A stretch of 38,499 nucleotides of DNA. Origin: Planctomycetota bacterium. Its GTDB lineage: Bacteria > Planctomycetota > Phycisphaerae > Sedimentisphaerales > Anaerobacaceae. The notes under the pieces are model-generated. The model searched no databases and was not told where the DNA came from. It saw only the letters and a program-made list of their open reading frames with translations. The stretch is taken from positions 1 to 38,499 of the forward strand of contig JACNGQ010000411.1 of the NCBI GenBank assembly GCA_014384025.1. Direction: 5' to 3'. The translations under genes and the position numbers were made by a program. Positions 23,704 to 38,499 of this stretch are shown here, one piece after another; the stretch's first letter is position 1, and each line of letters opens with the position of its first letter.

Positions 23704-24990
23704 CTATCGGCTCTTGGATTCAAACCTTATCTCACCGCCGACGATTGTTGTCTCAACCTTGCCTTTGACTTTCCAGCCGTGATATGGGCAGTTCCTGCTC
23801 TTGGAACGGAATGTGTTTACGTCAATCTCATACTCAGCATTCGGGTCGATAATAGTAACATCTGCCTGTTTGCCCCTACCAAGTGTACCCTTATCTACAC
23901 CGATTATCTTTGCCGGCTTTTCCGCCATCAAACGAATCAATCCGGGCCAGTCCAGAATACCCGGCTCAATCAGTGCTTTAACGTAAAGACCTAATGCACA
24001 TTCCAGAGACGCTATACCGAAAGGAGCAGTCAAAAATTCCAGTTCCTTTTCACTTTGCAGGTGCGGTGCATGGTCGGTTGCCAGTGCATCTATAAGGCCT
24101 TCGGCAATAGCCTGCTTCAGGGCTTCAACATCTTTTTCCGTCCGCAGAGGCGGGTTTACCTTATAGTTGGTATCATACTCGGCACAACATTGCTCAGTTA
24201 AAAGTAAATGATGCGGTGCTACCTCACAGGTAATCGGCAGAGAATCTTTTTTGGCGGCTCTTATCAGTTCGACCGACCCGGCTGTCGATATATGCTGAAC
24301 GTGGTAACGAACCTCGGCCTTTTTAATAAGCTGAATATCGCGCCAGAGTATCATCTCTTCCGCCAATGGGTCTATCCCAGGTAAACCCAGTATAGTCGAA
24401 TAGTAGCCGGAGTTCATTACACCATTGCCTGTAAAATTTTCAGCCTGACAATGCTGGGCCACAACCACATCGAACATAGCAGCATATTTCAAAGCCCGCA
24501 GCATAACAGCCGCGTCCTGCACCCCCCTGCCGTCATCGGTAAATCCAACCGCCCCTGCCTCTGCCATAAATCCCATCTCGGCAAGTTCAACACCCTGCAG
24601 TCCTTTTGTTATGGCTCCCATTGTATAGACATGGGTTTTTCTGGTTTGCCTGCCCTTTCGATGGATGTATTCGACATCGGTTTCATTTTCGATAACAGGA
24701 TTGGTGTTCGGCATACAGACTACCGAAGTGAAACCTGCCGCTAAAGCCGCTGCTGAACCACTTGCTATTGTTTCTTCCTCTTCATCGCCCGGTTCACGAA
24801 AATGAACGTGGATATCAATCAAACCTGGTACGACTAACTTGCCGGCCGCATCGATAACCGTCTGTACAGGTTTATCGACTTTGCCCACCTCTGCAATCTT
24901 TTCATCGACGATAAGCACATCACATTTTTTATCGATGCCGTTCGCAGGGTCTATTACCCGCCCATTTTTTATCAATAATTCGGAACTCAT
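23704..24990 (-). CDS. pyrC: Dihydroorotase
   Basis: 428 residues from the ATG at 24990; the frame also allows a TTG at 25011, but that would add a non-conserved leader. The enzyme closes carbamoyl aspartate to dihydroorotate in de novo pyrimidine synthesis. Zinc ligands are visible in DIHVHFREPGDE, and the type I signature GAVGFTDDGRGVQD follows. Further metal and active-site regions are QHCQAE, EVAPHHLLLTE and the conserved LATDHAPH with its catalytic Asp. APFGIASLECALGLYVKAL follows, as in class I enzymes. It directly follows pyrB (24 bases) in the order pyrR-pyrB-pyrC, common in Gram-positives and some other phyla. No Shine-Dalgarno is apparent, suggesting coupling to pyrB translation. 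Confidence 0.95.
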   Translation of the reverse strand: MSSELLIKNGRVIDPANGIDKKCDVLIVDEKIAEVGKVDKPVQTVIDAAGKLVVPGLIDIHVHFREPGDEEEETIASGSAAALAAGFTSVVCMPNTNPVIENETDVEYIHRKGRQTRKTHVYTMGAITKGLQGVELAEMGFMAEAGAVGFTDDGRGVQDAAVMLRALKYAAMFDVVVAQHCQAENFTGNGVMNSGYYSTILGLPGIDPLAEEMILWRDIQLIKKAEVRYHVQHISTAGSVELIRAAKKDSLPITCEVAPHHLLLTEQCCAEYDTNYKVNPPLRTEKDVEALKQAIAEGLIDALATDHAPHLQSEKELEFLTAPFGIASLECALGLYVKALIEPGILDWPGLIRLMAEKPAKIIGVDKGTLGRGKQADVTIIDPNAEYEIDVNTFRSKSRNCPYHGWKVKGKVETTIVGGEIRFESKSR

Positions 24991-25014
24991 ATTAATATAA
25001 TAACTTATCAATAA

Positions 25015-25974
25015 TCATTTTTGTTGTGCTGCCGCCTGGTTGACCAGGAACAAAACTGCCATTCTTACAGCCAGACCGTTGGTAACCTGCTCTAAAATAA
25101 CACTATTGCGGCCGTCAGCTACTTCGCTTTCTATCTCCAGTCCTCTGTTAATCGGCCCGGGATGCATAACTAAAATATCAGGTTTGGCCCTTTTCATACG
25201 TTCAACAGTCAGTCCGAAATAATGCGAATATTCTCGTATCGAAGGAAAAGGATTTCCTCCCAGACGCTCAAACTGAATCCGCAGCATATTTATTACATCG
25301 ACCTTTTCAATAACCTCATCAAGGCTGTAGCTTACTTTAACAGGCAATTGTCTTACCTGTGGGGGCATAAGTGTCGGCGGGCCAACAAATATAATCTCTG
25401 CACCGAGTTTTGTCATCGCCCACATATCACTGCGGGCCACCCGCGAGTGCGCTATGTCACCGACAATCGCTATCTTCAATCCTTCAAGAGTGCCCTTTAT
25501 TTTGCGGATAGTATAGGTATCCAAAAGACCTTGTGTAGGATGCTCACAGAATCCGTCGCCGGCATTTACCACGCAGGCATTGATATTCCTGCTTAAAAAT
25601 TTCGGCGCGCCGCCGGCATTATGACGAACCACAACTATGTCAATCCCCAGCGCCTCCAGGTTTCTGGCCGTATCCAAAAGAGACTCGCCCTTACTGACAG
25701 AACTTGTCTTCTTGGTGAATTCGATAATATCTGCACTTAACCGATTTGCGGCCAGGGAAAAGCTGTTCCGTGTCCGCGTACTGTCTTCAAAAAAAAGGTT
25801 TACAACAACTTTGCCGCGTAAAGGCGGGGCCTTTTTGACCGCTCGGGTACTTATCTGCTCAAAACCTTCGGCTGTATCAAGAATGTAAGTAATCTCCTCG
25901 GCACTAAGCTCCCGCAGGCCAAGTAAGTGTTTGCGATGCCACTTGATTTCTTTACTTTTTCTTTTCAACGCCAT
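25015..25974 (-). CDS. pyrB: Aspartate carbamoyltransferase catalytic subunit
   Basis: 319 residues, full length for the catalytic chain, which joins carbamoyl phosphate and aspartate in the first committed pyrimidine step. The carbamoyl-phosphate site FFEDSTRTRNSF is near residue 60. KGESLLDTARNLEAL follows, then HPTQGLLDTYTI near 145, GDIAHSRVARSD near 172 and the C-terminal HPGPINRGLEI that binds both substrates. No regulatory chain (pyrI) is encoded nearby, in keeping with a pyrR-type operon. It is 79 bases downstream of pyrR, with no terminator hairpin between them. Confidence 0.96.
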   Translation of the reverse strand: MALKRKSKEIKWHRKHLLGLRELSAEEITYILDTAEGFEQISTRAVKKAPPLRGKVVVNLFFEDSTRTRNSFSLAANRLSADIIEFTKKTSSVSKGESLLDTARNLEALGIDIVVVRHNAGGAPKFLSRNINACVVNAGDGFCEHPTQGLLDTYTIRKIKGTLEGLKIAIVGDIAHSRVARSDMWAMTKLGAEIIFVGPPTLMPPQVRQLPVKVSYSLDEVIEKVDVINMLRIQFERLGGNPFPSIREYSHYFGLTVERMKRAKPDILVMHPGPINRGLEIESEVADGRNSVILEQVTNGLAVRMAVLFLVNQAAAQQK

Positions 25975-26053
25975 AGTTTTGTATATGTATATCTGAGTAT
26001 ATGAATTAATGCGAAACTTATCTTATAATTTTCTCAGTAATGCACACAATCAT

Positions 26054-26581
26054 TTACTCAATAACTACTTCATCTTTTCCGTCTGACTCAACAAGATTGA
26101 CCTGAACTAATGTACCCGGTGAGGTATCGGCCTTGTAGCCTGCGTAATCAGCCTGTATCGGAAACTCCCTGCCGGCCCTTTCAACAAGAACAGCCAGTCT
26201 TATCGCCTTTGGCCTGCCCAAATCTATAAGGGCATCCATCGCCGCCCTCGCTGAGCGACCCGTATATAAAACATCATCAACCAGAATAATGATTTTATCG
26301 TCAACGTCAAATCCGATTTCTGTAGTGCGAACCAGCGGTTGGGTGGTAACATGAGGCGAGTTTAGGTCATCACGATAAAGAGTTATATCCAGAGTTCCGC
26401 ACGGAACATCCTTGCCGAGCTTTTGCGATAGTTGGCCCGATAACCTTTGAGCAAGGACCTCTCCCCTGCTGCGGATGCCGATTACTGCAATATCCTGCTC
26501 AACCGGCGTTTCAGAAAGAATACGATCCCTAAGCTCATTGAGAACCTGCTCGATTTGTCCCGAATCTAAAATTACTTTCAT
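26054..26581 (-). CDS. pyrR: PyrR-type pyrimidine regulator / uracil phosphoribosyltransferase
   Basis: 175 residues, typical for PyrR. The PRPP-binding motif IILVDDVLYTGRSARAA lies near 100-115, preceded by GIRSRGEVLAQRL and the hallmark DITLYRDDL near 65-72. AVLVERAGREFPIQADYAG follows. In Bacillus the protein binds UMP and folds pyr mRNA to end transcription early, and it also has uracil phosphoribosyltransferase activity. Here it heads pyrR-pyrB-pyrC. No attenuator hairpin with T-run was seen either in the short upstream leader or between pyrR and pyrB, so RNA-based control is not supported by the sequence; enzymatic or other regulation is possible. Confidence 0.92.
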   Translation of the reverse strand: MKVILDSGQIEQVLNELRDRILSETPVEQDIAVIGIRSRGEVLAQRLSGQLSQKLGKDVPCGTLDITLYRDDLNSPHVTTQPLVRTTEIGFDVDDKIIILVDDVLYTGRSARAAMDALIDLGRPKAIRLAVLVERAGREFPIQADYAGYKADTSPGTLVQVNLVESDGKDEVVIE

Positions 26582-26874: not shown

Positions 26875-28644
26875 ATGATATATACACCTAAAAGAACGCT
26901 TTTGTTAAGTGTGATAACCTGTATAGCAGCGTTGTACAGTGCCGCCGGCTCTACAGCCATAGCTCAGGAAACGCAGAATACCAAAATCCTCCAACCACAG
27001 GGATTAGAACATGCCGGTATCTACTCATTAAAACGGATAGAGCCAAATTTGACCGGCGAAGGTGTTCGATTCGCCGTTATCTGTCGAAGTATTACCTATA
27101 TCGATGATGAACCGCAAAACGATTACCATCCTGACGTCGAGCATAACAGCTTAAATTCCAGCCGACTCTTTCTACACGATAAGGGCCAACCTCTTGCGGG
27201 CATTTCACCACATTCGACTGCCATCTGCTCAATACTGCTCGGTGAGGACCCTAACGCATTTTTCCCGCAAATAGGTCAATTTTACTACCAGGGCATAGCA
27301 CCTCAGGCTCAGGCTGACATCTACGAATTCTGGCATTTCTTAACCAATAACATCTTCGAGCACTTACCGCCGGACGCAGATATTATTACAATCGACAACG
27401 GCATTCAATTTGAAGATTGGTGGACTAATGGTATCGAATCAATGGCCGAACATTATGGTCTCACTGTCGTCGCCGCAATAGGTAACGGAACCAATGCTCA
27501 TGACCCTGTCCTGTATCCGGGAGCCGGGGCCAACATCATCGGAGTCGGCGTCATTGACTCTGTAGATACTAAAGATATTGCTACCAACCTGGAACATTTT
27601 GCATTGGCCTATCCGGAGCATTCGACTTTCGGTCCGACACCCGATGAGCGGTGTAAACCTGACATCGTCGCTCCCGGCAATTGCCTGGCCGCAATCGAAA
27701 ACAAACCCAACGTCTATGAACCAACCGGTAACTGGTCAAGCTTCTCGACGCAAATAGTAGCTGGAACAATCGGCTTGCTCGTTCAAAAAGCCAAACAGGA
27801 TCCAAACTTAAGTCCCGCTATCTCGCCGGATGCCGGAAACTGCGTTATCAAAGCAATACTATTAAATTCAGCAGACAAACTGCCCTTCTGGCATAAGGGC
27901 CAACTCCAAACCGACGATGACCACACCGTCCCTCTTGACTACATTCAAGGGGCAGGATTGTTAAATGCAGTAGGAGCCTACAGGCATTTAACATCCGGGC
28001 AAAATGAGCCCGGCGATGTTTCAACAACCGGATGGGACTCAAACCAACTCTATAGCAGCCCAGGGCTGGAAAATGTTTACAAAATCACATTAGCCGAACC
28101 TGCCGGCAAATTTATCACAACCACTCTCGTCTGGAACAAACACTTTGACAGAACCTATCCATTCGGACCGGCTCCTGAAAAAGACAGCAACTTTCGCCTC
28201 GAACTCTGGGCAGTTGACCCGAACAATCCCGGCAACGACTTTCTACTCGACTATAGTGACAGCAATGTTGATAATGTTGAGCACATCTATATTCCTGCAG
28301 ACCCCAACTATTCAGACTACGAAATTATTTTGTCTTTGAACGAAAATGACTACCCAAGAGAAATAGCCATAGCACAAAGTTATGGCCTGGCCTGGAACAT
28401 AAGTGATAAACAAGACAACGACAGCATCTTTTGGTATGACCTGAATGCCGACGGTATTATTAACGAATCAGACTTTGCCATCCTGCTCAATAACATCTTT
28501 AACAGCACAAAATCTCCGGACAGCTATTTACTCGGTGACATCAATTCTGACGGCGCAATCGATATCAAAGATTTCAATCTCCTCATAGAACACAATGAGC
28601 GTCAGGCCGATTGGTATATAAGACCAGACGATAAGCCAAAATAA
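26875..28644 (+). CDS. Secreted subtilisin-fold protein lacking the catalytic Asp, with C-terminal dockerin
   Basis: 589 residues with a signal peptide (LLLSVITCIAALYSAAGS, cleavage near residue 30). The body follows the S8 peptidase plan. The strand normally ending in the catalytic Asp reads RFAVICRSI with Cys70 in that place. The His motif is PHSTAICSI (His113), the oxyanion loop is VVAAIGNGTN, and KPDIVAPGN is typical of S8. The serine loop is NWSSFSTQIVAG, with Ser289 at the catalytic position. With Asp replaced it is probably inactive or unusual. A beta-rich region follows, then a type I dockerin pair at the C-terminus (DLNADGIINESDFAILLN and DINSDGAIDIKDFNLLIE), two EF-hand-like calcium repeats. 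Dockerins bind cohesins; none is encoded here. Only a weak GGA precedes the start. A binding or structural role is inferred. Confidence 0.82.
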   Translation: MIYTPKRTLLLSVITCIAALYSAAGSTAIAQETQNTKILQPQGLEHAGIYSLKRIEPNLTGEGVRFAVICRSITYIDDEPQNDYHPDVEHNSLNSSRLFLHDKGQPLAGISPHSTAICSILLGEDPNAFFPQIGQFYYQGIAPQAQADIYEFWHFLTNNIFEHLPPDADIITIDNGIQFEDWWTNGIESMAEHYGLTVVAAIGNGTNAHDPVLYPGAGANIIGVGVIDSVDTKDIATNLEHFALAYPEHSTFGPTPDERCKPDIVAPGNCLAAIENKPNVYEPTGNWSSFSTQIVAGTIGLLVQKAKQDPNLSPAISPDAGNCVIKAILLNSADKLPFWHKGQLQTDDDHTVPLDYIQGAGLLNAVGAYRHLTSGQNEPGDVSTTGWDSNQLYSSPGLENVYKITLAEPAGKFITTTLVWNKHFDRTYPFGPAPEKDSNFRLELWAVDPNNPGNDFLLDYSDSNVDNVEHIYIPADPNYSDYEIILSLNENDYPREIAIAQSYGLAWNISDKQDNDSIFWYDLNADGIINESDFAILLNNIFNSTKSPDSYLLGDINSDGAIDIKDFNLLIEHNERQADWYIRPDDKPK

Positions 28645-30210: not shown

Positions 30211-31494
30211 ATGAAATTGATTGTAAAAAAATCACGGCTAAAAGGAACGGTGCTGATTCCGGGCTCCAAGTCGCACACTATACGTGCCGTCGCGATAGCC
30301 TCTTTAGCAGCAGGTGAAAGTCTTATCCATAATCCTCTGGATTCAAGCGATACACAGGCAGCGGTGGCGTGCTATCGAGCCTTAGGCGCTGAGATTAACA
30401 TATCTGATCCCAAACTCTGGAAGGTAAAAGGCACTGGTGGTACAATTACACCGCCGCCGGAAATCATCGATGTGGGCAATTCCGGCACAACTCTGCGTAT
30501 AGCAATGGGTTCGGCTTCGCTGGCCCAGGCCGGCCAAACCATATCTTTCACCGGCGATGAACAAATTCAGACCCGTCCTGTCGGGCCGCTAATGGATGCT
30601 CTCGCTGAACTCGGCGCTAAATGCACAAGCCTTAAAAGCAACGGCAAAGCTCCTGTTGAGATAATGGGAAAACTGACAGGTGGAAAAACCGCCATTGCCG
30701 CGACGACAAGTCAATATCTCTCCAGCTTGCTCTTGTGCGCACCATTAGCTTCCAAAGATACCTTGATAGATGTAACTTTGCTAAACGAACCGGGTTATGT
30801 ACAAATGACACTCGACTGGCTCGACAAACAGCAGATTGAATACGATAACCAACAGATGCGTACATTCAAAATCAAAGGCAATCAAAGCTACAAAGCTTTC
30901 GATGCCAAAATCCCCGCCGACTTTTCCAGTGCCACGTTCTTTCTTTGCGCTGCCGCCATATCCGCAGAGCAAGTAACTTTGCTCGGGCTGGATTTTACAG
31001 ATAGTCAGCCCGACAAAGCAGTCGTTGATTACCTAAAAGCAATGGGGGCCGATATTTATATTGGCCCGAATTCAGTAACAGTTAAAGCAGCAACGCTCAA
31101 AGGCACGGAGTTTGATATGAACAAGACCCCCGATGCACTGCCCGCTATGGCTGTTACCGCTGCTTTTGCCAAAGGAACAACCAAACTGCTGAACGTCCCC
31201 CAGGCTCGCAATAAAGAGACCGACCGAATCAAATGCATGGCCGAAGAGTTGGAAAAAATGGACATAGATGTTGAAGAATTACCGGATGGCCTTATAATAA
31301 ACGGCGGTAAGCCCAAACCCGCTGAATTACACGGCTGGGCTGACCACCGAATCGTAATGGCATTGTCTATGATGGGCCTGAATATGAATACTCAATGCAC
31401 CATAGATACCGCCGAGGCAATCAGCGTTACGTTTCCCGGTTACGTGGAATTGATGAAGGCTCTCGGTGCAAATATGGAAATACTTGAATGTTAA
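30211..31494 (+). CDS. aroA: 3-phosphoshikimate 1-carboxyvinyltransferase (EPSP synthase)
   Basis: 427 residues, standard length. It transfers enolpyruvyl from PEP to shikimate 3-phosphate, the sixth step of the shikimate pathway, in the cytoplasm. Substrate-binding motifs are all visible: PGSKSHTIRA near 18-27, GNSGTTLRIAMG near 89, TRPVGPLMDAL near 117, TSQYLSSLLL near 165, DFSSATFFLCAAA, PDALPAMAVTAAFAKGTT near 305, ARNKETDRI near 331 and ADHRIVMALSMMGL near 380. The C-terminus (SVTFPGYVELMKALGANME) lacks the Lys of the E. coli form, as do class II enzymes such as the CP4 type. It lies 73 bases before the chorismate-synthase-like gene, which would carry the next step. No strong ribosome site is visible. 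Confidence 0.95.
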   Translation: MKLIVKKSRLKGTVLIPGSKSHTIRAVAIASLAAGESLIHNPLDSSDTQAAVACYRALGAEINISDPKLWKVKGTGGTITPPPEIIDVGNSGTTLRIAMGSASLAQAGQTISFTGDEQIQTRPVGPLMDALAELGAKCTSLKSNGKAPVEIMGKLTGGKTAIAATTSQYLSSLLLCAPLASKDTLIDVTLLNEPGYVQMTLDWLDKQQIEYDNQQMRTFKIKGNQSYKAFDAKIPADFSSATFFLCAAAISAEQVTLLGLDFTDSQPDKAVVDYLKAMGADIYIGPNSVTVKAATLKGTEFDMNKTPDALPAMAVTAAFAKGTTKLLNVPQARNKETDRIKCMAEELEKMDIDVEELPDGLIINGGKPKPAELHGWADHRIVMALSMMGLNMNTQCTIDTAEAISVTFPGYVELMKALGANMEILEC

Positions 31495-31567: not shown

Positions 31568-32890
31568 ATGATTGGTTGTCACATTGGACGTTGTTTTCAG
31601 GTTACAGTGGCCGGAGGTTCTTACCAGGAAGGCCTGAGCTCTCTCATACATGGTGTACCACCCGGCATGTTACTGACCGAACAGGAAATATATGGTGACC
31701 TGCTTCTTAGAAAGCCCGGAGCCGATGAGTTGAGTAGTCCGCGAAAAGAGCCGGACCTCCCGATTATCTACTCCGGCATAAATGTAGCGGACACTATCGA
31801 GGGGGCCGGAAATAACAATCACACCAACGGTACACCTCTGGCAATTCTTATTCCCAACCTGGACCGCCATTTCATTCACATCAAGCAATACCAGGACACT
31901 AATCGCACACCACGCCCGGGTCATGCTTCCTATGCTTCCTTCAAAAAGTATGGCCCCGATGACGATGCCATTGGCGCGGGCATTTTCAGTGGACGTTACA
32001 CTTCGACCATCGTGGCCGCCGGATACGTCGCTAAAAAAGTCCTTAAGAAATGCGGTATCGAAGTCTTTTCCTATGTAAAGGAAATAGCCGGCGTCCGATG
32101 CCCCGACGTCGCCGCCGATAAGGCCTTTCAGTACACCAATGATTACAAAACAATGCGCCATGACCTCGACCCGTTTTATCAGGAGATTTATGTTAAAGGC
32201 CGCATAAATATGGACATGAGATTTCTGGAAAAAACCAGAATATTAGCAGAGATTGAGCAGGAAATCGATGCTATTCGCGACAAGGCTCCGAAGCTCTCTG
32301 CCAAATCCGTACGGGACAAATACAACGTGCATCCGATAGTAAACTGCCCTGATACCGATGCCGCTCAGGCAATGGTTGATGCCTGTAACCGCATCGCAGC
32401 CACAGGTGATTCTGCAGGCGGAGTGGTCGAAGTGGTTGTTACCGGTGTCCCGGCAGGTCTCGGAGAACCGGTTTTTAATAAACTCGACGCCGAACTGGGC
32501 AGAATGCTCGGCATTGGTGCCGTTAAAGGTGTCGAGATTGGAGCCGGCTTTGCAGTCAAAGACATGACCGGCTATGAGAATAACGACCAGATGAGATCTG
32601 AAAACGGCAAGGTTATTTTTGAATCAAACAACGCCGGCGGCATTACTGGAGGCCTTTCTACAGGCCAGCCGATTGTGGTTAAACTGGCGGTTAAGCCTAC
32701 ACCCACTATTGACAAGCCCCAGAAGACAATTGACAAATATACACTGGAAAACACAGACCTGGCTGCTATTACCAGGCGTGACCCAACGATTGTAGCTCGA
32801 ATATGGCCGGTCGCAGAAAACTATACCTCTATGGTGATACTCGATCACTTGTTTGCACACTACGGCTACCAAATGTTAAAGGAAAAATGA
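31568..32890 (+). CDS. Divergent chorismate synthase-like protein
   Basis: 440 residues, longer than the usual 350-400. The overall fold is clear from IGRCFQVTVAG, HGVPPGMLLTE, TNGTPLAILIPN, RPGHASYASFKKYG (His119), VPAGLGEPVFNKLDAEL, SNNAGGITGGLSTGQPI and the closing WPVAENYTSMVILDHL. Signature residues differ, however. The near-invariant GESHG near the N-terminus reads GGSYQ, so the catalytic His is Tyr19. GRSSARET is replaced by SGRYTSTIV, and the late RHDPC motif is RRDPT. It follows aroA and has AGGAG 11 bases upstream and a terminator downstream, so it is expressed with the shikimate gene. It may be a functional but unusual chorismate synthase or a paralogue with another activity. The symbol is withheld because of these changes. 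Confidence 0.82.
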   Translation: MIGCHIGRCFQVTVAGGSYQEGLSSLIHGVPPGMLLTEQEIYGDLLLRKPGADELSSPRKEPDLPIIYSGINVADTIEGAGNNNHTNGTPLAILIPNLDRHFIHIKQYQDTNRTPRPGHASYASFKKYGPDDDAIGAGIFSGRYTSTIVAAGYVAKKVLKKCGIEVFSYVKEIAGVRCPDVAADKAFQYTNDYKTMRHDLDPFYQEIYVKGRINMDMRFLEKTRILAEIEQEIDAIRDKAPKLSAKSVRDKYNVHPIVNCPDTDAAQAMVDACNRIAATGDSAGGVVEVVVTGVPAGLGEPVFNKLDAELGRMLGIGAVKGVEIGAGFAVKDMTGYENNDQMRSENGKVIFESNNAGGITGGLSTGQPIVVKLAVKPTPTIDKPQKTIDKYTLENTDLAAITRRDPTIVARIWPVAENYTSMVILDHLFAHYGYQMLKEK

Positions 32891-32934: not shown

Positions 32935-32968
32935 CGCACGCTGATAAATCAGCGAGCGTTTTTTTTTA
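32935..32968. terminator. Bidirectional terminator after aroA-aroC-like block
   Basis: The stem CGCTGA / TCAGCG is extended by CGC/GCG across one A-A mismatch (about 32935-32958), with loop TAAA. A run of nine or more T follows on plus and TTTTT on minus. It lies between the convergent aroC-like and giant beta-helix genes. Confidence 0.87.
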
Positions 32969-32998: not shown

Positions 32999-35900
32999 TT
33001 ACGGATCAGCCCTTTCTTCTGTTGACCAGGCCGTCTCATTGCGGAACTGATCGCGTGCCTTGACTCGGAAATGGTGGCCTTGTCCGCTTCTTCCTAACTG
33101 GACTATATATATCTCACTTGCTTGCCAGCCGCTGCTAAAGCCAGAGTTGGTCGTACACTGGAAGAAATACTCAACAGGTCCGCCACCGGCATCAGTAGCC
33201 ACAGAAGCTGTCATCTGAGCAAAATATTCCCAGATACCCAAGTTACCATCGCCATCAGCATCTATCTGAACCTCTCGGGGTGTCCCGTCGAAGCCATTCG
33301 GGTCCTGAGTCGGATCCCACGTCATAGGATCGGGCGTTGGGGCAATCAGGTCCACTGAAACCAGGGTTCTAACAGTAACTGTCGCCGACCATTCGGTTTC
33401 GTTCCGATAAACGGATTTATCTCTGGCCTTGACCCTGTATGAGTATTCTGTGTTGGGGTCAAGATCAGCATCTGTATAATTCGGATCATCCTGCCAGCCG
33501 CTATCGTGCCCGCCGGTAGATGTGCTCTCGAAATAATACTCCACTTCACTGTCATCAATGGCAATCGATGATGTCATCGAAACCGAAGTCTCCGAAGCAG
33601 CAAAGATGGTTTCAATGTAAGGAGCAGGTGCCGGAGGTATGCTGTCTAAACCTGCATAGCGGACTTCAGCCCACTCTGTTTCATTACCCACTCCATCTCG
33701 TGCTTTTACCCTGTAGCCATATTCTACGCCGGATGTAAGGCCTCTGTCGGTATATGTCGGGCTCCTCTGCCAGCCGCTGTCATGGCCGCCATCGACACTG
33801 ATACTTTCGAAGTAATATTCAACATCCCAGCCCCAGGCATCGGTAGCTGTCTCAGCAGTCATCGTGATTGATCCTGCAGAGCTTAAATACGGCTCTGTTT
33901 CCCATCTGGTCGGATCATGTATCGGAGCAACCGTGTCTTCGACGAGCCAGCAGTCAGCCAGGAAAGCTATATCCCTCATATCAACATACATATCTGATGT
34001 CAAATCTGCTCCATCGCACCAGTTATTCGCCTTTGAACAACTATCCTCAAGCCATCTATCAGCAAGTACCGCAAAATCACGGAAGTTAATCACACCATCC
34101 AGCACAAGGTCACACAATCTGCATGGTTCCGCTCCCGGATGATGGTAGCCAATATCAACACGACCTGCATCGGATTGTCCGTCGGTTCGGGTCGTATGTC
34201 CCAACATACCAACATAGCTTGAGTAATCACTGCCGGCATCAACATAGGGGCTGTTCTGGCCTTGACCGGCAACGACCTGGCTTAAATAGTACCTACCAAG
34301 CGGGCCTTCGACAAATAATGGATCTTTATCTTTATTTCCGCTGCCCCAGTTGACAGTACAACCATCATCAACCCAAATAGCAGATCGCCCATCTTTAACA
34401 CCACTATGTGAAATGGAAAGTGTTGCACACCGCTCGTCAAACTCGAAACCGCCTCCCACTGCAATCCCGTTCCCTTTCAAGGCAAAATTGTTCCAGAAGA
34501 TGCTGTCGGTAATTACGCAGTTGCTCTCGTAAGAAACGTAAAGCCCGCCACCGAAACCGGTATTACCAGGTTCACCGAGAAAGCCCGAAGTGGCATTACC
34601 GGCGAATGTGCAGTTGGATATAATCGAATTAGTAAACCAGTTGGCCGAAACACCACCACCATCTCTGCTGGCTCCATTGTTTATAATCAGGTTATTGACC
34701 AATGATGCAGTATTTACATCACGCAGATACACACCACCACCTGAATAATCGGCTATATTGCCGCTGATGTTGCAATCCTGGATGTTGATTCCTCCCTGCC
34801 AGCAGTATAAACCGGCACCGTCAGCGAGAATATTATCATCATTGGGATCGTTAACATCGCCAATCGCCCTGTTATTGGTAACGCGGCTGCTTATGATATT
34901 GATTAAACCATCAACGCTAATGAAACCGCCGCCACGAAGTGCTTCATTGGATGTAATATTGCAGTCTACGATTGTCACAGTTGTATCATCGGTATATATT
35001 CCACCACCGGAATCGGCTCGATTGTCAACAAAATTGCAGTCAACAAACACTACTGCAGCGCTGCTCTGAGAACATACACCGCCTCCATATCCGAGATATG
35101 GATCAAGACTATGATTAGGATCAGTTACTCCCGCCGGAAGTCCCGAAGCAATATTATCTTCAAATGTGCAACCCGTGAAAGTTACTATAGACTCAGCCGC
35201 ACAATAAACACCGGCTCCGTAAGTTGGGATCTCAAAGGAAACCAGCGGATCAAGATTCCTGGCGGTTCCACTCACTGTACCGCCAATACCGCTCATTCCA
35301 CCCTCTGTGCGGTTCCCTCTGATTTCGCAGTTTACAAAAGTAACATTACTGCCTATGTCACAAAATGCGCCTCCTCCATATCCGGAGTACCATCGATAGT
35401 CACCGAAGTAAGAAGTCAGGTTAGGTTCATCATAAATAATCCCGTAGGAAGGTGCAAAGTCCCATTCCCAGGCTTCCCATAAGGGACCCATTATTGGCGT
35501 GATCAAAAGACTATTAGGATCAATATCAGCCGCCTGAGACTTGCTGTAGTTTCCTCCGTAGTTGCCTTCGCCGGTACCATCACCATCCCCGCCGTTGCCA
35601 CCGTTGCCGCCGCGGGCTGTGTTGTTCTCGATTATACAGTTTATAAACTTGGGACTACTGTCCGGTCCGCACCATATAGCTCCACCGTGTGCCCAGCCGC
35701 CCCAGCCGCCCCGGCCTGCATTAAATCCATTCGCCCCGTCTGCTCCTACGCCGTTGCCGCCATTACCGCCTTCGACTAAATTGTCTCTTATTATACAGTT
35801 TTTGATAATGGGGCTGGCTCCGTTTAGGATGCGTATTGCAGCACCTTCGAAACTGCCGCCGTCCTCACCGTTGGGATGATTTGCGTTCCTGTCACCGTCA

Positions 35901-38499
35901 GCGCCATCTTCAATATGTCCACCGCAGTTCTGTATTGTAATGCCATTGAGGACTGTTCTGGAATCTGTCTCAGACGTAAATAAAACACCAATATTGGTCC
36001 AGTTATTAATACCTATATACCCATCAATAATCGTCGCAGCTACAGTGCTGGGATCGTCGGGATTTCTCGATGTGATAGTAACAGCCTTGGTCACCAAAAG
36101 CGAGACTCCTACAGACCCACCGAAATAAGTCCCGGGATCAACTACAATTATATCTCCATCATTGGCAGCATTAACCGCCTCCTGGATTGTCGGGAAGTTG
36201 CCCGGTACGGTAACAGTCCTGCCGACATACTTCACGAACTCAACGGTAATAGTCTTGTTCGAATCCATTGTCACGGTATTATTAAGAGCAACAGAGCTAT
36301 CGTTATCGGTGCCTACCCATTTTACCCGATAGCCCGGATCCACTGTCGCATTCAGTTTAACTACAGTGAACTTATCGTACGTCCCACCTTTAGGTCGGAT
36401 TGTACCGTTCTTACCTACTGTATTTACAACCAAGCGATATTTTTCTGCGCCGATGGTATAATGCAAGCCTATATCGACCTGTCCCATATCGGGGACACCA
36501 TCTGAGCGGGTTGTGAACTCTTCGAGGCCAAGAGAAATAACCGAACCACTACCTGCATCGACGCAGGGACTATCTACGCTCTGCCCGGCCGCAATTTGGC
36601 TCAGGCTGTGGTGCGATGCAACAAAGAGCGGATCGGCGTCAATATTACCTCCAAGCCAGTTGAGGATGCGTCCCGGCTCAATATAGATTGCTGCAGGACT
36701 CCGCCCTCCCTGGATATCACAATAAGAAACTGTAAGAGCGGCGGGCCTGTCTAAATAGATCGGCTCATCATCGCTGCCGATCGATATCTGGTTGCCGTGA
36801 GTGCCGACGTTGTCCCACAAGATACTATTAGTAAGAGTCGTTTGGCTTCGATAAGAGCAGGACAATCCGCCACCTCTTCCGTGTTTATTATTAGCCGGGT
36901 CATTCGCCCTGTTATTAACAATTGTACAATTGGAGATCGTTGGTGTAGTAAGCCAGTAAGAGATGATACCACCACCGTCCAGGACGGCCGAGTTCCCTTT
37001 AACTAAACAGTTTTTAAGAATTGGCACGCTTGGGTCACCGCCGAAATACACACCGCCGCCGGAGCCGGCAGACGAATTGCCGGTGATAAAGCAATTTTCA
37101 ATTATTGCTTCAGAAGACCAGCAGAACATTCCGCCACCACCGCCGAAAGGCTTGTTAGTACCGAAGGAACTAAGATCAGGCTGGATCCGGCGTGCTTTGG
37201 CTCTATTACCCATAACACTACAGCCCGTTATAATCGGTGTCCCGCTGCTCCAGTACATACCTCCACCATGTTCAGCAACATTATTAATGATAACCGAGTC
37301 TAAAATTGATATCTCTGCACTATCACCGTACCAGTACAGAGCGCCTCCGAATGCCGATTCATTATTACTAAAGTAACTATTATCGATTGTTACCTCATTG
37401 CCATTGTACCACTCACCGTTGTCTATGTCCCATATTCCACCACCGTATATTGCACCTCCGGAGCTGAAAGTACCAATAGTCGAATTGCCTATGAAATCGC
37501 TGTCGCTAATCTTGATAGCGATATCGGACAACAAGAACAATCCACCACCATCACCACTGGAAGAGTTATCGACATAGCTACAATCATTAATCTCAACCGA
37601 ACATAAATCTTCAAAGTACTGAGCCCCTCCATTTCCACTGGCCCCGGCAAGGTTACCTATGTATTGACAGTTATTAAGCAGGACCTCGCATCCACTCTCA
37701 TAATATTCGCCGCCGCCGTCCTGGCCGCTGCCGTTATATTGCCTTGAAGCATTATTGCTTATCGTGCAGTTAGTAAGCCTGACCACACAATCGATCTCGT
37801 AGTAATTGGCGCCTCCGTAGCTTGGGGTGAAGCTGGTCATTACTAAACCAGGCAGACCTCCTGCACCTGCTCCGCCACCTGCGCCTGGGGCGCCGCCTGC
37901 GCCTGCGCTGCCGGGACCTAATGTATTAGGATCATTCGGATCTCCTGCCCCGGCGGGGCCGCCTGCTCCACCATTACCGCCTACGCCGCCGTCACCACCA
38001 GTGCCATCCCCGTCAGGGTCACCACCAGCGCCGCCGTCGCCGCCGTCGCCGCCGCCATAAGTATATGTCGGAACAATCGTTTCAGCACTACTATCACTAA
38101 TAATAGTATCTGTTATTTCAACCTCGCAGCCCTCTGCGTAGTATATGGCACCTGCCCACGACCTTATGCCGTTTACACCCATATTGTTACCATTACCACC
38201 GTCACCACCAGTACCGCCGCCGCTGCTGCCACCGTCTGCACCGTCTGCGCCTGCGGGTTCACCATCACCGCCGCCGCCGCCGGCGTCACCTGGTGCGCCG
38301 AGGCCGCCGCTACCGCCATTACCGCCATCACCGCTGTAATTACCCACTCCCTGCTTGGTAGAACAGTTCAGAATTTCACAGAATCGTATTACAGGCTTAC
38401 AACCAGGGCCGAAATACATAGCACCACCCAAGGCTTCTCCACCGTCGCCGCCTATACCACCGTCGCCGCCTCTTCCGCCGTTGCCGCCTGGGCCGCCGT
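32999..38499 (-). CDS. Giant glycine-rich parallel beta-helix surface protein with dockerin and Fn3-like repeats, 5' end cut by window
   Basis: At least 1832 residues. The frame is open to the right edge, so the N-terminus and signal peptide are missing. Two similar right-handed beta-helix modules (about 38499-36440 and 36215-34140) are built of Pmp-like repeats ending in N-S/N-x-A/G-GG-G-x-Y/F. Both end with the same cap (DPLFV...LSQ.AGQ...SP.VDAGS ... TR.DG..D.G.VDIG.H). Loops carry collagen-like Gly-rich inserts (GGDGGAGGDPDGDGTGGDGG). An InlB-type repeat (VVNTVGKNGTIRPKGG) links the modules. An internal type I dockerin (about 34135-33930; LDGVINFRDFAVLADRW, SDMYVDMRDIAFLADCW) and three Fn3-like repeats sharing GW.(R/D)(S/D)P.YTD and YRVKARD end it. 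Such proteins are thought to be surface adhesins or polysaccharide-binding proteins. No PEP-CTERM tail is present. Confidence 0.88.
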   Translation of the reverse strand, partial: GGPGGNGGRGGDGGIGGDGGEALGGAMYFGPGCKPVIRFCEILNCSTKQGVGNYSGDGGNGGSGGLGAPGDAGGGGGDGEPAGADGADGGSSGGGTGGDGGNGNNMGVNGIRSWAGAIYYAEGCEVEITDTIISDSSAETIVPTYTYGGGDGGDGGAGGDPDGDGTGGDGGVGGNGGAGGPAGAGDPNDPNTLGPGSAGAGGAPGAGGGAGAGGLPGLVMTSFTPSYGGANYYEIDCVVRLTNCTISNNASRQYNGSGQDGGGEYYESGCEVLLNNCQYIGNLAGASGNGGAQYFEDLCSVEINDCSYVDNSSSGDGGGLFLLSDIAIKISDSDFIGNSTIGTFSSGGAIYGGGIWDIDNGEWYNGNEVTIDNSYFSNNESAFGGALYWYGDSAEISILDSVIINNVAEHGGGMYWSSGTPIITGCSVMGNRAKARRIQPDLSSFGTNKPFGGGGGMFCWSSEAIIENCFITGNSSAGSGGGVYFGGDPSVPILKNCLVKGNSAVLDGGGIISYWLTTPTISNCTIVNNRANDPANNKHGRGGGLSCSYRSQTTLTNSILWDNVGTHGNQISIGSDDEPIYLDRPAALTVSYCDIQGGRSPAAIYIEPGRILNWLGGNIDADPLFVASHHSLSQIAAGQSVDSPCVDAGSGSVISLGLEEFTTRSDGVPDMGQVDIGLHYTIGAEKYRLVVNTVGKNGTIRPKGGTYDKFTVVKLNATVDPGYRVKWVGTDNDSSVALNNTVTMDSNKTITVEFVKYVGRTVTVPGNFPTIQEAVNAANDGDIIVVDPGTYFGGSVGVSLLVTKAVTITSRNPDDPSTVAATIIDGYIGINNWTNIGVLFTSETDSRTVLNGITIQNCGGHIEDGADGDRNANHPNGEDGGSFEGAAIRILNGASPIIKNCIIRDNLVEGGNGGNGVGADGANGFNAGRGGWGGWAHGGAIWCGPDSSPKFINCIIENNTARGGNGGNGGDGDGTGEGNYGGNYSKSQAADIDPNSLLITPIMGPLWEAWEWDFAPSYGIIYDEPNLTSYFGDYRWYSGYGGGAFCDIGSNVTFVNCEIRGNRTEGGMSGIGGTVSGTARNLDPLVSFEIPTYGAGVYCAAESIVTFTGCTFEDNIASGLPAGVTDPNHSLDPYLGYGGGVCSQSSAAVVFVDCNFVDNRADSGGGIYTDDTTVTIVDCNITSNEALRGGGFISVDGLINIISSRVTNNRAIGDVNDPNDDNILADGAGLYCWQGGINIQDCNISGNIADYSGGGVYLRDVNTASLVNNLIINNGASRDGGGVSANWFTNSIISNCTFAGNATSGFLGEPGNTGFGGGLYVSYESNCVITDSIFWNNFALKGNGIAVGGGFEFDERCATLSISHSGVKDGRSAIWVDDGCTVNWGSGNKDKDPLFVEGPLGRYYLSQVVAGQGQNSPYVDAGSDYSSYVGMLGHTTRTDGQSDAGRVDIGYHHPGAEPCRLCDLVLDGVINFRDFAVLADRWLEDSCSKANNWCDGADLTSDMYVDMRDIAFLADCWLVEDTVAPIHDPTRWETEPYLSSAGSITMTAETATDAWGWDVEYYFESISVDGGHDSGWQRSPTYTDRGLTSGVEYGYRVKARDGVGNETEWAEVRYAGLDSIPPAPAPYIETIFAASETSVSMTSSIAIDDSEVEYYFESTSTGGHDSGWQDDPNYTDADLDPNTEYSYRVKARDKSVYRNETEWSATVTVRTLVSVDLIAPTPDPMTWDPTQDPNGFDGTPREVQIDADGDGNLGIWEYFAQMTASVATDAGGGPVEYFFQCTTNSGFSSGWQASEIYIVQLGRSGQGHHFRVKARDQFRNETAWSTEERADP

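What the first reader, a model, noticed from the sequence alone, without database searches (positions are those of the whole stretch)
31568..32890. Chorismate-synthase-like protein with altered catalytic signature next to aroA
The aligned core motifs of chorismate synthase are all present in order, but GESHG reads GGSYQ (catalytic His to Tyr, Glu to Gly), GRSSARET is lost and RHDPC is RRDPT. The second conserved His (RPGHA) is kept. The gene is intact, 440 codons long, and adjacent to a normal aroA, so it is not simple decay. It could be a chorismate synthase with reworked FMN chemistry, or a paralogue acting on another enolpyruvyl substrate. Which one applies cannot be read from sequence alone.
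Basis: partly seen in the sequence, partly recalled or inferred. Interest (0 to 1): 0.62.

Follow-up and report, generated by a model that had tools for sequence, protein, structure and literature searches.

The report
Chorismate synthase lacking its catalytic histidine
A whole branch of aquatic and sediment bacteria (Planctomycetota) appears to make chorismate, the parent of the aromatic amino acids, with a version of chorismate synthase in which the histidine described as conserved in every known species has been replaced by tyrosine, so that histidine is probably not essential to this enzyme.

Summary
Window 31568-32890 encodes an intact 440-aa chorismate synthase (CS) homologue with GGSYQ where GESHG belongs. 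It is no oddity of one genome: GGSYQ is fixed in 105 related sequences (GASYQ in one more), while every other Planctomycetota CS read at that place keeps His. The clade carries a helical insert of about 73 aa and often lies behind aroA. Two shorter sister proteins read GESYG and lack the insert, so His->Tyr came first, once. In near-complete relatives either this type or a His-type CS (usually an AroK-AroC fusion) mostly occurs alone. The window's genome has this as its only CS homologue, with aroB, aroDE, aroA, prephenate dehydratase and two chorismate-using enzymes. dN/dS is 0.04-0.09; the model (pLDDT 92) matches solved CSs at Z up to 42. Ser18, His119, Ser141, Arg143, Arg403 and Asp405 are kept. 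Best reading: a working CS on EPSP in which Tyr19 replaces the phosphate-side histidine. 'Other substrate' and 'relic' are disfavoured; the GRSSARET and RHDPC changes matter less than claimed. Activity was not testable here. Separately, the genome and many relatives lack any recognisable shikimate kinase. New variant of a known enzyme.

The parts
31568..32890 (+). Tyr-type chorismate synthase homologue ('V type'), 440 aa
   Evidence: ORF; PF01264 and TIGR00033 above cut-offs; model pLDDT 92, Z up to 42 to solved CSs
31613..31627 (+). GGSYQ (residues 16-20), replaces GESHG; Tyr19 codon TAC at 31622-31624
   Evidence: sequence; gapless alignment to solved CSs; fixed in 105 sequences
31922..31924 (+). 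His119 of RPGHA, equivalent of N. crassa His106 / S. pneumoniae His110, kept
   Evidence: invariant in 59 CSs; role from PMC3509576
31979..32002 (+). GIFSGRYT (residues 138-145) in place of GRSSARET; Ser141, Arg143 and Thr145 kept
   Evidence: alignment A3
32120..32338 (+). Clade-specific insert of about 73 aa (residues about 185-257), predicted as confident helices, with invariant K194, R197, Y204, Y208, R212, R237 and Y252
   Evidence: absent from canonical CS and from the GESYG sister proteins; helices in the model; invariant columns
32774..32788 (+). RRDPT (residues 403-407) in place of RHDPC; Arg403 and Asp405 kept
   Evidence: role of the Asp from PMC3509576 and PMC2386126
31552..31556 (+). 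AGGAG, ribosome-binding-site-like
   Evidence: sequence read; consensus only
30211..31494 (+). aroA (EPSP synthase), directly upstream on the same strand, 73 bases before the CS start
   Evidence: PF00275 and TIGR01356 401.8 bits, cut-off 287; aroA upstream of the V gene in 51 of 86 loci
32939..32954 (+). terminator-like hairpin with T run behind the CS gene
   Evidence: pattern scan only; number of such sites in the region is not clearly above shuffles

Best explanation
This is the chorismate synthase of its host, a divergent Tyr-type. It converts EPSP to chorismate and phosphate with reduced FMN, as other CSs do. His119 would protonate flavin N1; Asp405, through water, would prime N5 to take the C6-proR hydrogen; Ser18, Ser141, Arg48, Arg116, Arg143 and Arg403 would hold EPSP and FMN. 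The phosphate-side histidine (N. crassa His17), proposed to protonate the leaving phosphate, is replaced by Tyr19. Tyr19 either donates that proton itself or only fills the site while the arginines stabilise the phosphate. Shown here: homology and predicted fold, retention of the other catalytic residues, fixation of Tyr, one origin of the Tyr clade, sole-copy status, occurrence in place of canonical CS across genomes, purifying selection. Inferred: CS activity, EPSP as substrate, the role of Tyr19, and any role of the insert.
For: Only PF01264 match in its genome (95.4% complete), E 2.6e-96. All 30 genomes at >=90% completeness and <=5% contamination have a CS homologue; of 22 genomes at >=95% completeness (own included), 12 have only the Tyr type (11 read in full, G019 judged by score), 7 only a His type, 3 both. 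The genome also has aroB, an aroDE fusion, aroA, prephenate dehydratase and two chorismate-binding enzymes, so chorismate is presumably made. aroA lies upstream on the same strand in 51 of 86 loci; order aroA-aroKC-V occurs in L031, L045, L112 and L113, and the window shows the same order without aroKC. dN/dS 0.036-0.094. GGSYQ in 105 sequences. S18, R48, R116, H119, S141, R143, R403, D405 invariant across V, intermediate and canonical CSs. Model pLDDT 92.2, Z 41.9 to 7rca and 37.6 to 1qxo, the FMN-EPSP complex. Sister proteins GESYG/RRDPT without the insert join the clade at 99/96 with the motif columns left out.
Against: The His changed here is described as present in all known CSs (PMC2386126). 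No activity data. Some genomes hold both types, in four loci side by side, which a fully redundant enzyme does not explain. The window's genome has no recognisable shikimate kinase, so how EPSP is supplied is unexplained. The stem branch of the V clade is long, as can follow a change of function.
Confidence: 0.82

Rival explanations
1. A paralogue that eliminates a leaving group from another enolpyruvyl or cyclohexene substrate, with chorismate made by something else.
For: Active-site changes, clade-specific insert and long stem branch; coexistence with canonical AroKC in G029, G036, G044, G045 and loci L112, L113.
Against: 12 near-complete genomes have no other CS homologue yet carry chorismate-using enzymes; AroA next door is of one type whether the genome has V or canonical CS; no non-homologous CS is known (own knowledge).
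Confidence: 0.08
2. A Tyr-type CS whose chemistry is re-wired, acting on an EPSP analogue without the 3-phosphate or with another leaving group, in lineages that lack shikimate kinase.
For: The residue lost is the one proposed to protonate the leaving phosphate (PMC2386126, PMC7144000); no shikimate kinase found in the window's genome and in many V-only genomes.
Against: About ten V-only genomes do have a shikimate kinase; EPSP-binding arginines are kept; AroA residues do not differ between kinase-bearing and kinase-less genomes apart from family f2.
Confidence: 0.05
3. A catalytically dead or regulatory homologue kept as a partner of another enzyme (for example AroA or AroKC), with an unseen CS elsewhere.
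For: Loss of a conserved histidine; gene next to aroA and sometimes aroKC.
Against: Other catalytic residues are invariant; AroKC is absent from most genomes that carry V.
Confidence: 0.04
4. A decaying relic or a sequencing or assembly artefact.
For: None beyond the motif change itself.
Against: dN/dS 0.04-0.09; 105 distinct sequences with the same motif; intact frame and aroA linkage.
Confidence: 0.01

Closest known systems
Canonical chorismate synthase, AroC/AroF, EC 4.2.3.5 (PF01264, TIGR00033; solved 1qxo, 1um0, 2o12, 1r52, 7rca, 4lj2)
   Same: Predicted fold (Z 37-42 for the three best matches), full-length homology, conserved Ser18, His119, Ser141, Arg143, Arg403, Asp405, frequent linkage to aroA, place in the pathway
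   Different: Tyr19 for the histidine of GESHG, Gly17 and Gln20 for its Glu and last Gly, Ile139-Phe140 and Tyr144 in the GRSSARET stretch, RRDPT, a helical insert of about 73 aa and a shorter insert at about residues 72-81
GESYG intermediates L148 (G370) and L149 (G216), Planctomycetota
   Same: Tyr in place of His, ITRRDPT, three extra residues ahead of the RPGH stretch; sister to the V clade at 99/96; L149 is also preceded by aroA
   Different: Keep Glu, Gly and GRASGRET, have no long insert, about 380-390 aa
AroK-AroC fusions of Sedimentisphaerales (about 545 aa)
   Same: Canonical CS found in the same order of bacteria and sometimes beside the V gene
   Different: GESHG, RHDPC, fused shikimate kinase domain
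CSs with GxGxFSGRLT and GESHG (L013, L188)
   Same: FSGR in place of SSAR, as in the V type
   Different: Keep the histidine; no long insert

Membership tests
Chorismate synthase family (PF01264 / TIGR00033) | Full-length profile match above curated cut-off | tested here: met
   PF01264 323.9 bits (cut-off 27), TIGR00033 323.9 (cut-off 212.2)
Chorismate synthase family (PF01264 / TIGR00033) | Chorismate synthase fold | tested here: met
   predicted model, pLDDT 92.2; Z 41.9, 1.8 A over 348 residues to 7rca; Z 37.6, 2.5 A over 354 to 1qxo
Canonical chorismate synthase (EC 4.2.3.5 active-site signature) | Histidine of GESHG (N. crassa His17, M. tuberculosis His11) | tested here: not met
   Tyr19, fixed in the clade; so it is not filed as a canonical CS but as a divergent variant of the family
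Canonical chorismate synthase (EC 4.2.3.5 active-site signature) | Second histidine, RPGH (His106/His110) | tested here: met
   H119 invariant
Canonical chorismate synthase (EC 4.2.3.5 active-site signature) | Aspartate of R-x-D (Asp367/Asp339) | tested here: met
   D405 invariant; effect of its loss from PMC3509576
Canonical chorismate synthase (EC 4.2.3.5 active-site signature) | Active-site serines (N. crassa Ser16 and Ser127; roles from own knowledge) | tested here: met
   S18 and S141 invariant in the 59-row alignment
Canonical chorismate synthase (EC 4.2.3.5 active-site signature) | Conversion of EPSP to chorismate with reduced FMN | not testable with these tools
   needs enzyme assay or complementation
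Chorismate synthase by genome context | Sole CS homologue in genomes that hold the pathway and use chorismate | tested here: met
   one step, shikimate kinase, has no recognisable gene
Bifunctional CS (own flavin reductase) | NAD(P)H-dependent FMN reduction | not testable with these tools
   PMC2386126 states it cannot be predicted from sequence

The most novel reading that the evidence does not exclude
A mechanistically distinct class of chorismate synthase in which tyrosine, next to the substrate's leaving phosphate and close to a flavin thought to pass through a radical state, replaces the histidine as proton donor (or takes part in the radical step), with the helical insert adding a function such as flavin reduction or tight FMN retention. 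It would show that a residue treated as universal in CS mechanisms is dispensable.
Probability: 0.3. Interest if true: 0.68.

Novelty: new variant of a known kind. Interest (0 to 1): 0.56.

Why it matters
Chorismate synthase is called the most conserved enzyme of the shikimate pathway (PMC9137983), and the histidine changed here is described as present across all known species (PMC2386126). A clade that lives without it, with natural step-wise intermediates, is a ready-made test of what that histidine does in an unusual flavin reaction whose proton steps are still argued over. It also shows that annotation resting on the GESHG motif would miss a whole lineage.

Tried and rejected
Search for a hidden canonical aroC in the genome: none. 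A coupled change in AroA that would point to a different substrate: none; AroA substrate-site residues are of one type in V-only, canonical-only and mixed genomes of the order, apart from two f2 genomes and G039. Replacement of shikimate kinase by the archaeal GHMP type: only weak generic GHMP matches, none over the cut-off; the 552-aa GHMP protein near a chorismate-binding gene sits beside an N-acetylglucosamine-6-phosphate-deacetylase-like gene and was dropped as a sugar kinase (by reading only). First structure model from V sequences alone was poor (pLDDT 66) and was not used. Matches outside CS in the fold comparison stood only at Z about 2. Papers on a CS without this histidine, or on CS in Phycisphaerae: none found in the held library. 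Coordinates of the model could not be read here, so the distance of Tyr19 to EPSP was not measured. A first extraction script assumed one strand and gave wrong translations; it was replaced.

Full report
What is there. The ORF at 31568-32890 (+) is intact, 440 aa. Pfam and NCBIfam call it chorismate synthase well above cut-off. Its N-terminal motif aligns without gaps to solved chorismate synthases (CSs) and reads GGSYQ for GESHG (codons). The neighbour at 30211-31494 is a normal-scoring aroA.

Is it an isolated oddity? No. In the window's genome it is the only PF01264 match. Among 60 relatives the full-length matches fall into two score classes, about 300-323 bits and about 440-461 bits, with one at 373. 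phmmer with one query of each type separates the fetched sequences cleanly: V type (like the window) and C type (canonical). In the column table of V sequences, G16, G17, S18, Y19 and Q20 are invariant in 38 of 38. A scan of genomes of 84,980 species found 216 stretches encoding relatives; the 80 kept are nearly all titled Planctomycetota, and those with a class mostly Phycisphaerae. A few bear other phylum names, which I take to be submitters' labels but did not check. GGSYQ was read in 105 distinct sequences and GASYQ in one. All other Planctomycetota CSs that I read at this position have His: GESHG, or GQSHS in two. V sequences cut off at contig ends could not be read there.

How it arose. 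Two proteins, L148 (G370) and L149 (G216), read GESYG, keep GRASGRET and a near-normal length, and already have ITRRDPT. A maximum-likelihood tree built without the motif and insert columns joins them with the V clade at 99/96, V itself at 100/100 (the bootstrap had not fully settled). So the simplest history is one His->Tyr change, with the RRDPT change, followed by Glu->Gly, Gly->Gln, the FSGRYT stretch and the insert. Both intermediates come from incomplete genomes (61% and 73%).

Which changes matter. RHDPC is not universal: 1qxo reads RSDPT, M. tuberculosis RSDVC, Aquifex RTDIV. FSGR in place of SSAR occurs in CSs that keep GESHG (L013, L188). Across 59 CSs of all types, S18, R48, R59, R116, H119, S141, R143, T145, R403 and D405 are invariant. 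In the literature the equivalent of H119 protonates flavin N1 (20-fold loss on change to Ala) and the equivalent of D405 activates N5 (300-600-fold loss) (PMC3509576). The equivalent of residue 19, His17, is proposed to protonate the leaving phosphate (PMC2386126; PMC7144000). From memory, the N. crassa His17Ala enzyme kept activity within about an order of magnitude; I could not check this in the held library. So the change falls on an active-site residue whose loss may be tolerable.

Does it work as CS? Indirect evidence is strong. Every one of the 30 genomes at >=90% completeness and <=5% contamination has a CS homologue. Of 22 at >=95% completeness (the window's genome included), 12 have only V, 7 only a His-type CS, 3 both (G019 counted as V by score alone). 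All 61 genomes have chorismate-binding enzymes and 58 have prephenate dehydratase. The window's genome has aroB, an ORF that reads as an aroDE fusion, and aroA. The V gene lies behind aroA on the same strand in 51 of 86 loci, mostly within 200 bases. In four loci the order is aroA-aroKC-V, of which the window shows the same order without aroKC. dN/dS against relatives is 0.036-0.094. The model built on V, intermediate and C sequences has pLDDT 92.2 and matches 7rca at Z 41.9 (1.8 A over 348 residues) and 1qxo at Z 37.6 (2.5 A over 354).

Same substrate? AroA residues that bind shikimate-3-phosphate and PEP in E. coli show the same pattern in V-only, canonical-only and mixed genomes of the order; two V-only genomes of family f2 and the canonical-only G039 vary a little. 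This argues against a change of substrate in step with the V type. The E. coli roles of those residues are from my own knowledge.

What stays open. No activity was measured. The function of the insert (helices between 183 and 252 in the model, several invariant Lys, Arg and Tyr) is unknown; it is absent from the intermediates. Why a few genomes keep both types is unexplained. Shikimate kinase (PF01202) is not found in the window's genome nor in many V-only relatives, although other V-only relatives have it. The archaeal type is not found above cut-off either. In C-type genomes the kinase is partly supplied by the AroK-AroC fusion, so loss of that fusion would remove both steps; what phosphorylates shikimate afterwards is a pathway hole. 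It does not change the verdict, since kinase-bearing V-only genomes exist.

Verdict. A homologue of CS that fails one defining feature of the canonical signature (the GESHG histidine) but keeps the rest and very probably does the job: a new variant of a known enzyme, of real interest to enzymologists, with straightforward tests.

Noticed in passing
whole genome of the window (G000) and about 30 relatives: No shikimate kinase of the AroK type (PF01202) and no archaeal-type kinase above cut-off, although the rest of the shikimate pathway is present; an unknown kinase probably fills the step.
   Followed up: partly
L002, L005, L007, L009, L011 and others: Canonical CS of Sedimentisphaerales is an AroK-AroC fusion of about 545 aa.
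   Followed up: partly
L031, L045, L112, L113: Gene order aroA-aroKC-V, with both CS types side by side on one strand.
   Followed up: partly
L148:1480-2616 (-), L149:1018-2193 (+): Natural intermediates with GESYG, no insert, RRDPT.
   Followed up: yes
window 30211-31494 and other AroA of the order: AroA has Glu at or next to the position of E. coli Ser197 and mostly Val or Ile for Lys411 in E. coli numbering; same in canonical-CS genomes.
   Followed up: partly
L013 / L043 (G039): A different CS, GESHG with GSGHFSGRLT and RHDAC, close to prephenate dehydratase, aroA and shikimate kinase on the chromosome: possibly acquired from another lineage.
   Followed up: no
window 23704-26581 (-): pyrR-pyrB-pyrC pyrimidine cluster.
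   Followed up: no
window 32999-38431 (-): ORF of 1810 aa rich in Gly/Asp repeats with dockerin-like stretches by reading; a member of its sequence cluster lies beside the V gene in about 33 of 88 loci, but the clustering is loose.
   Followed up: no
window 26875-28644 (+): Subtilase with a C-terminal dockerin type I domain.
   Followed up: no
L205:4071-5015 (-): Aldolase-like (DRE-TIM type, by reading) gene directly behind aroB in the window's genome.
   Followed up: no
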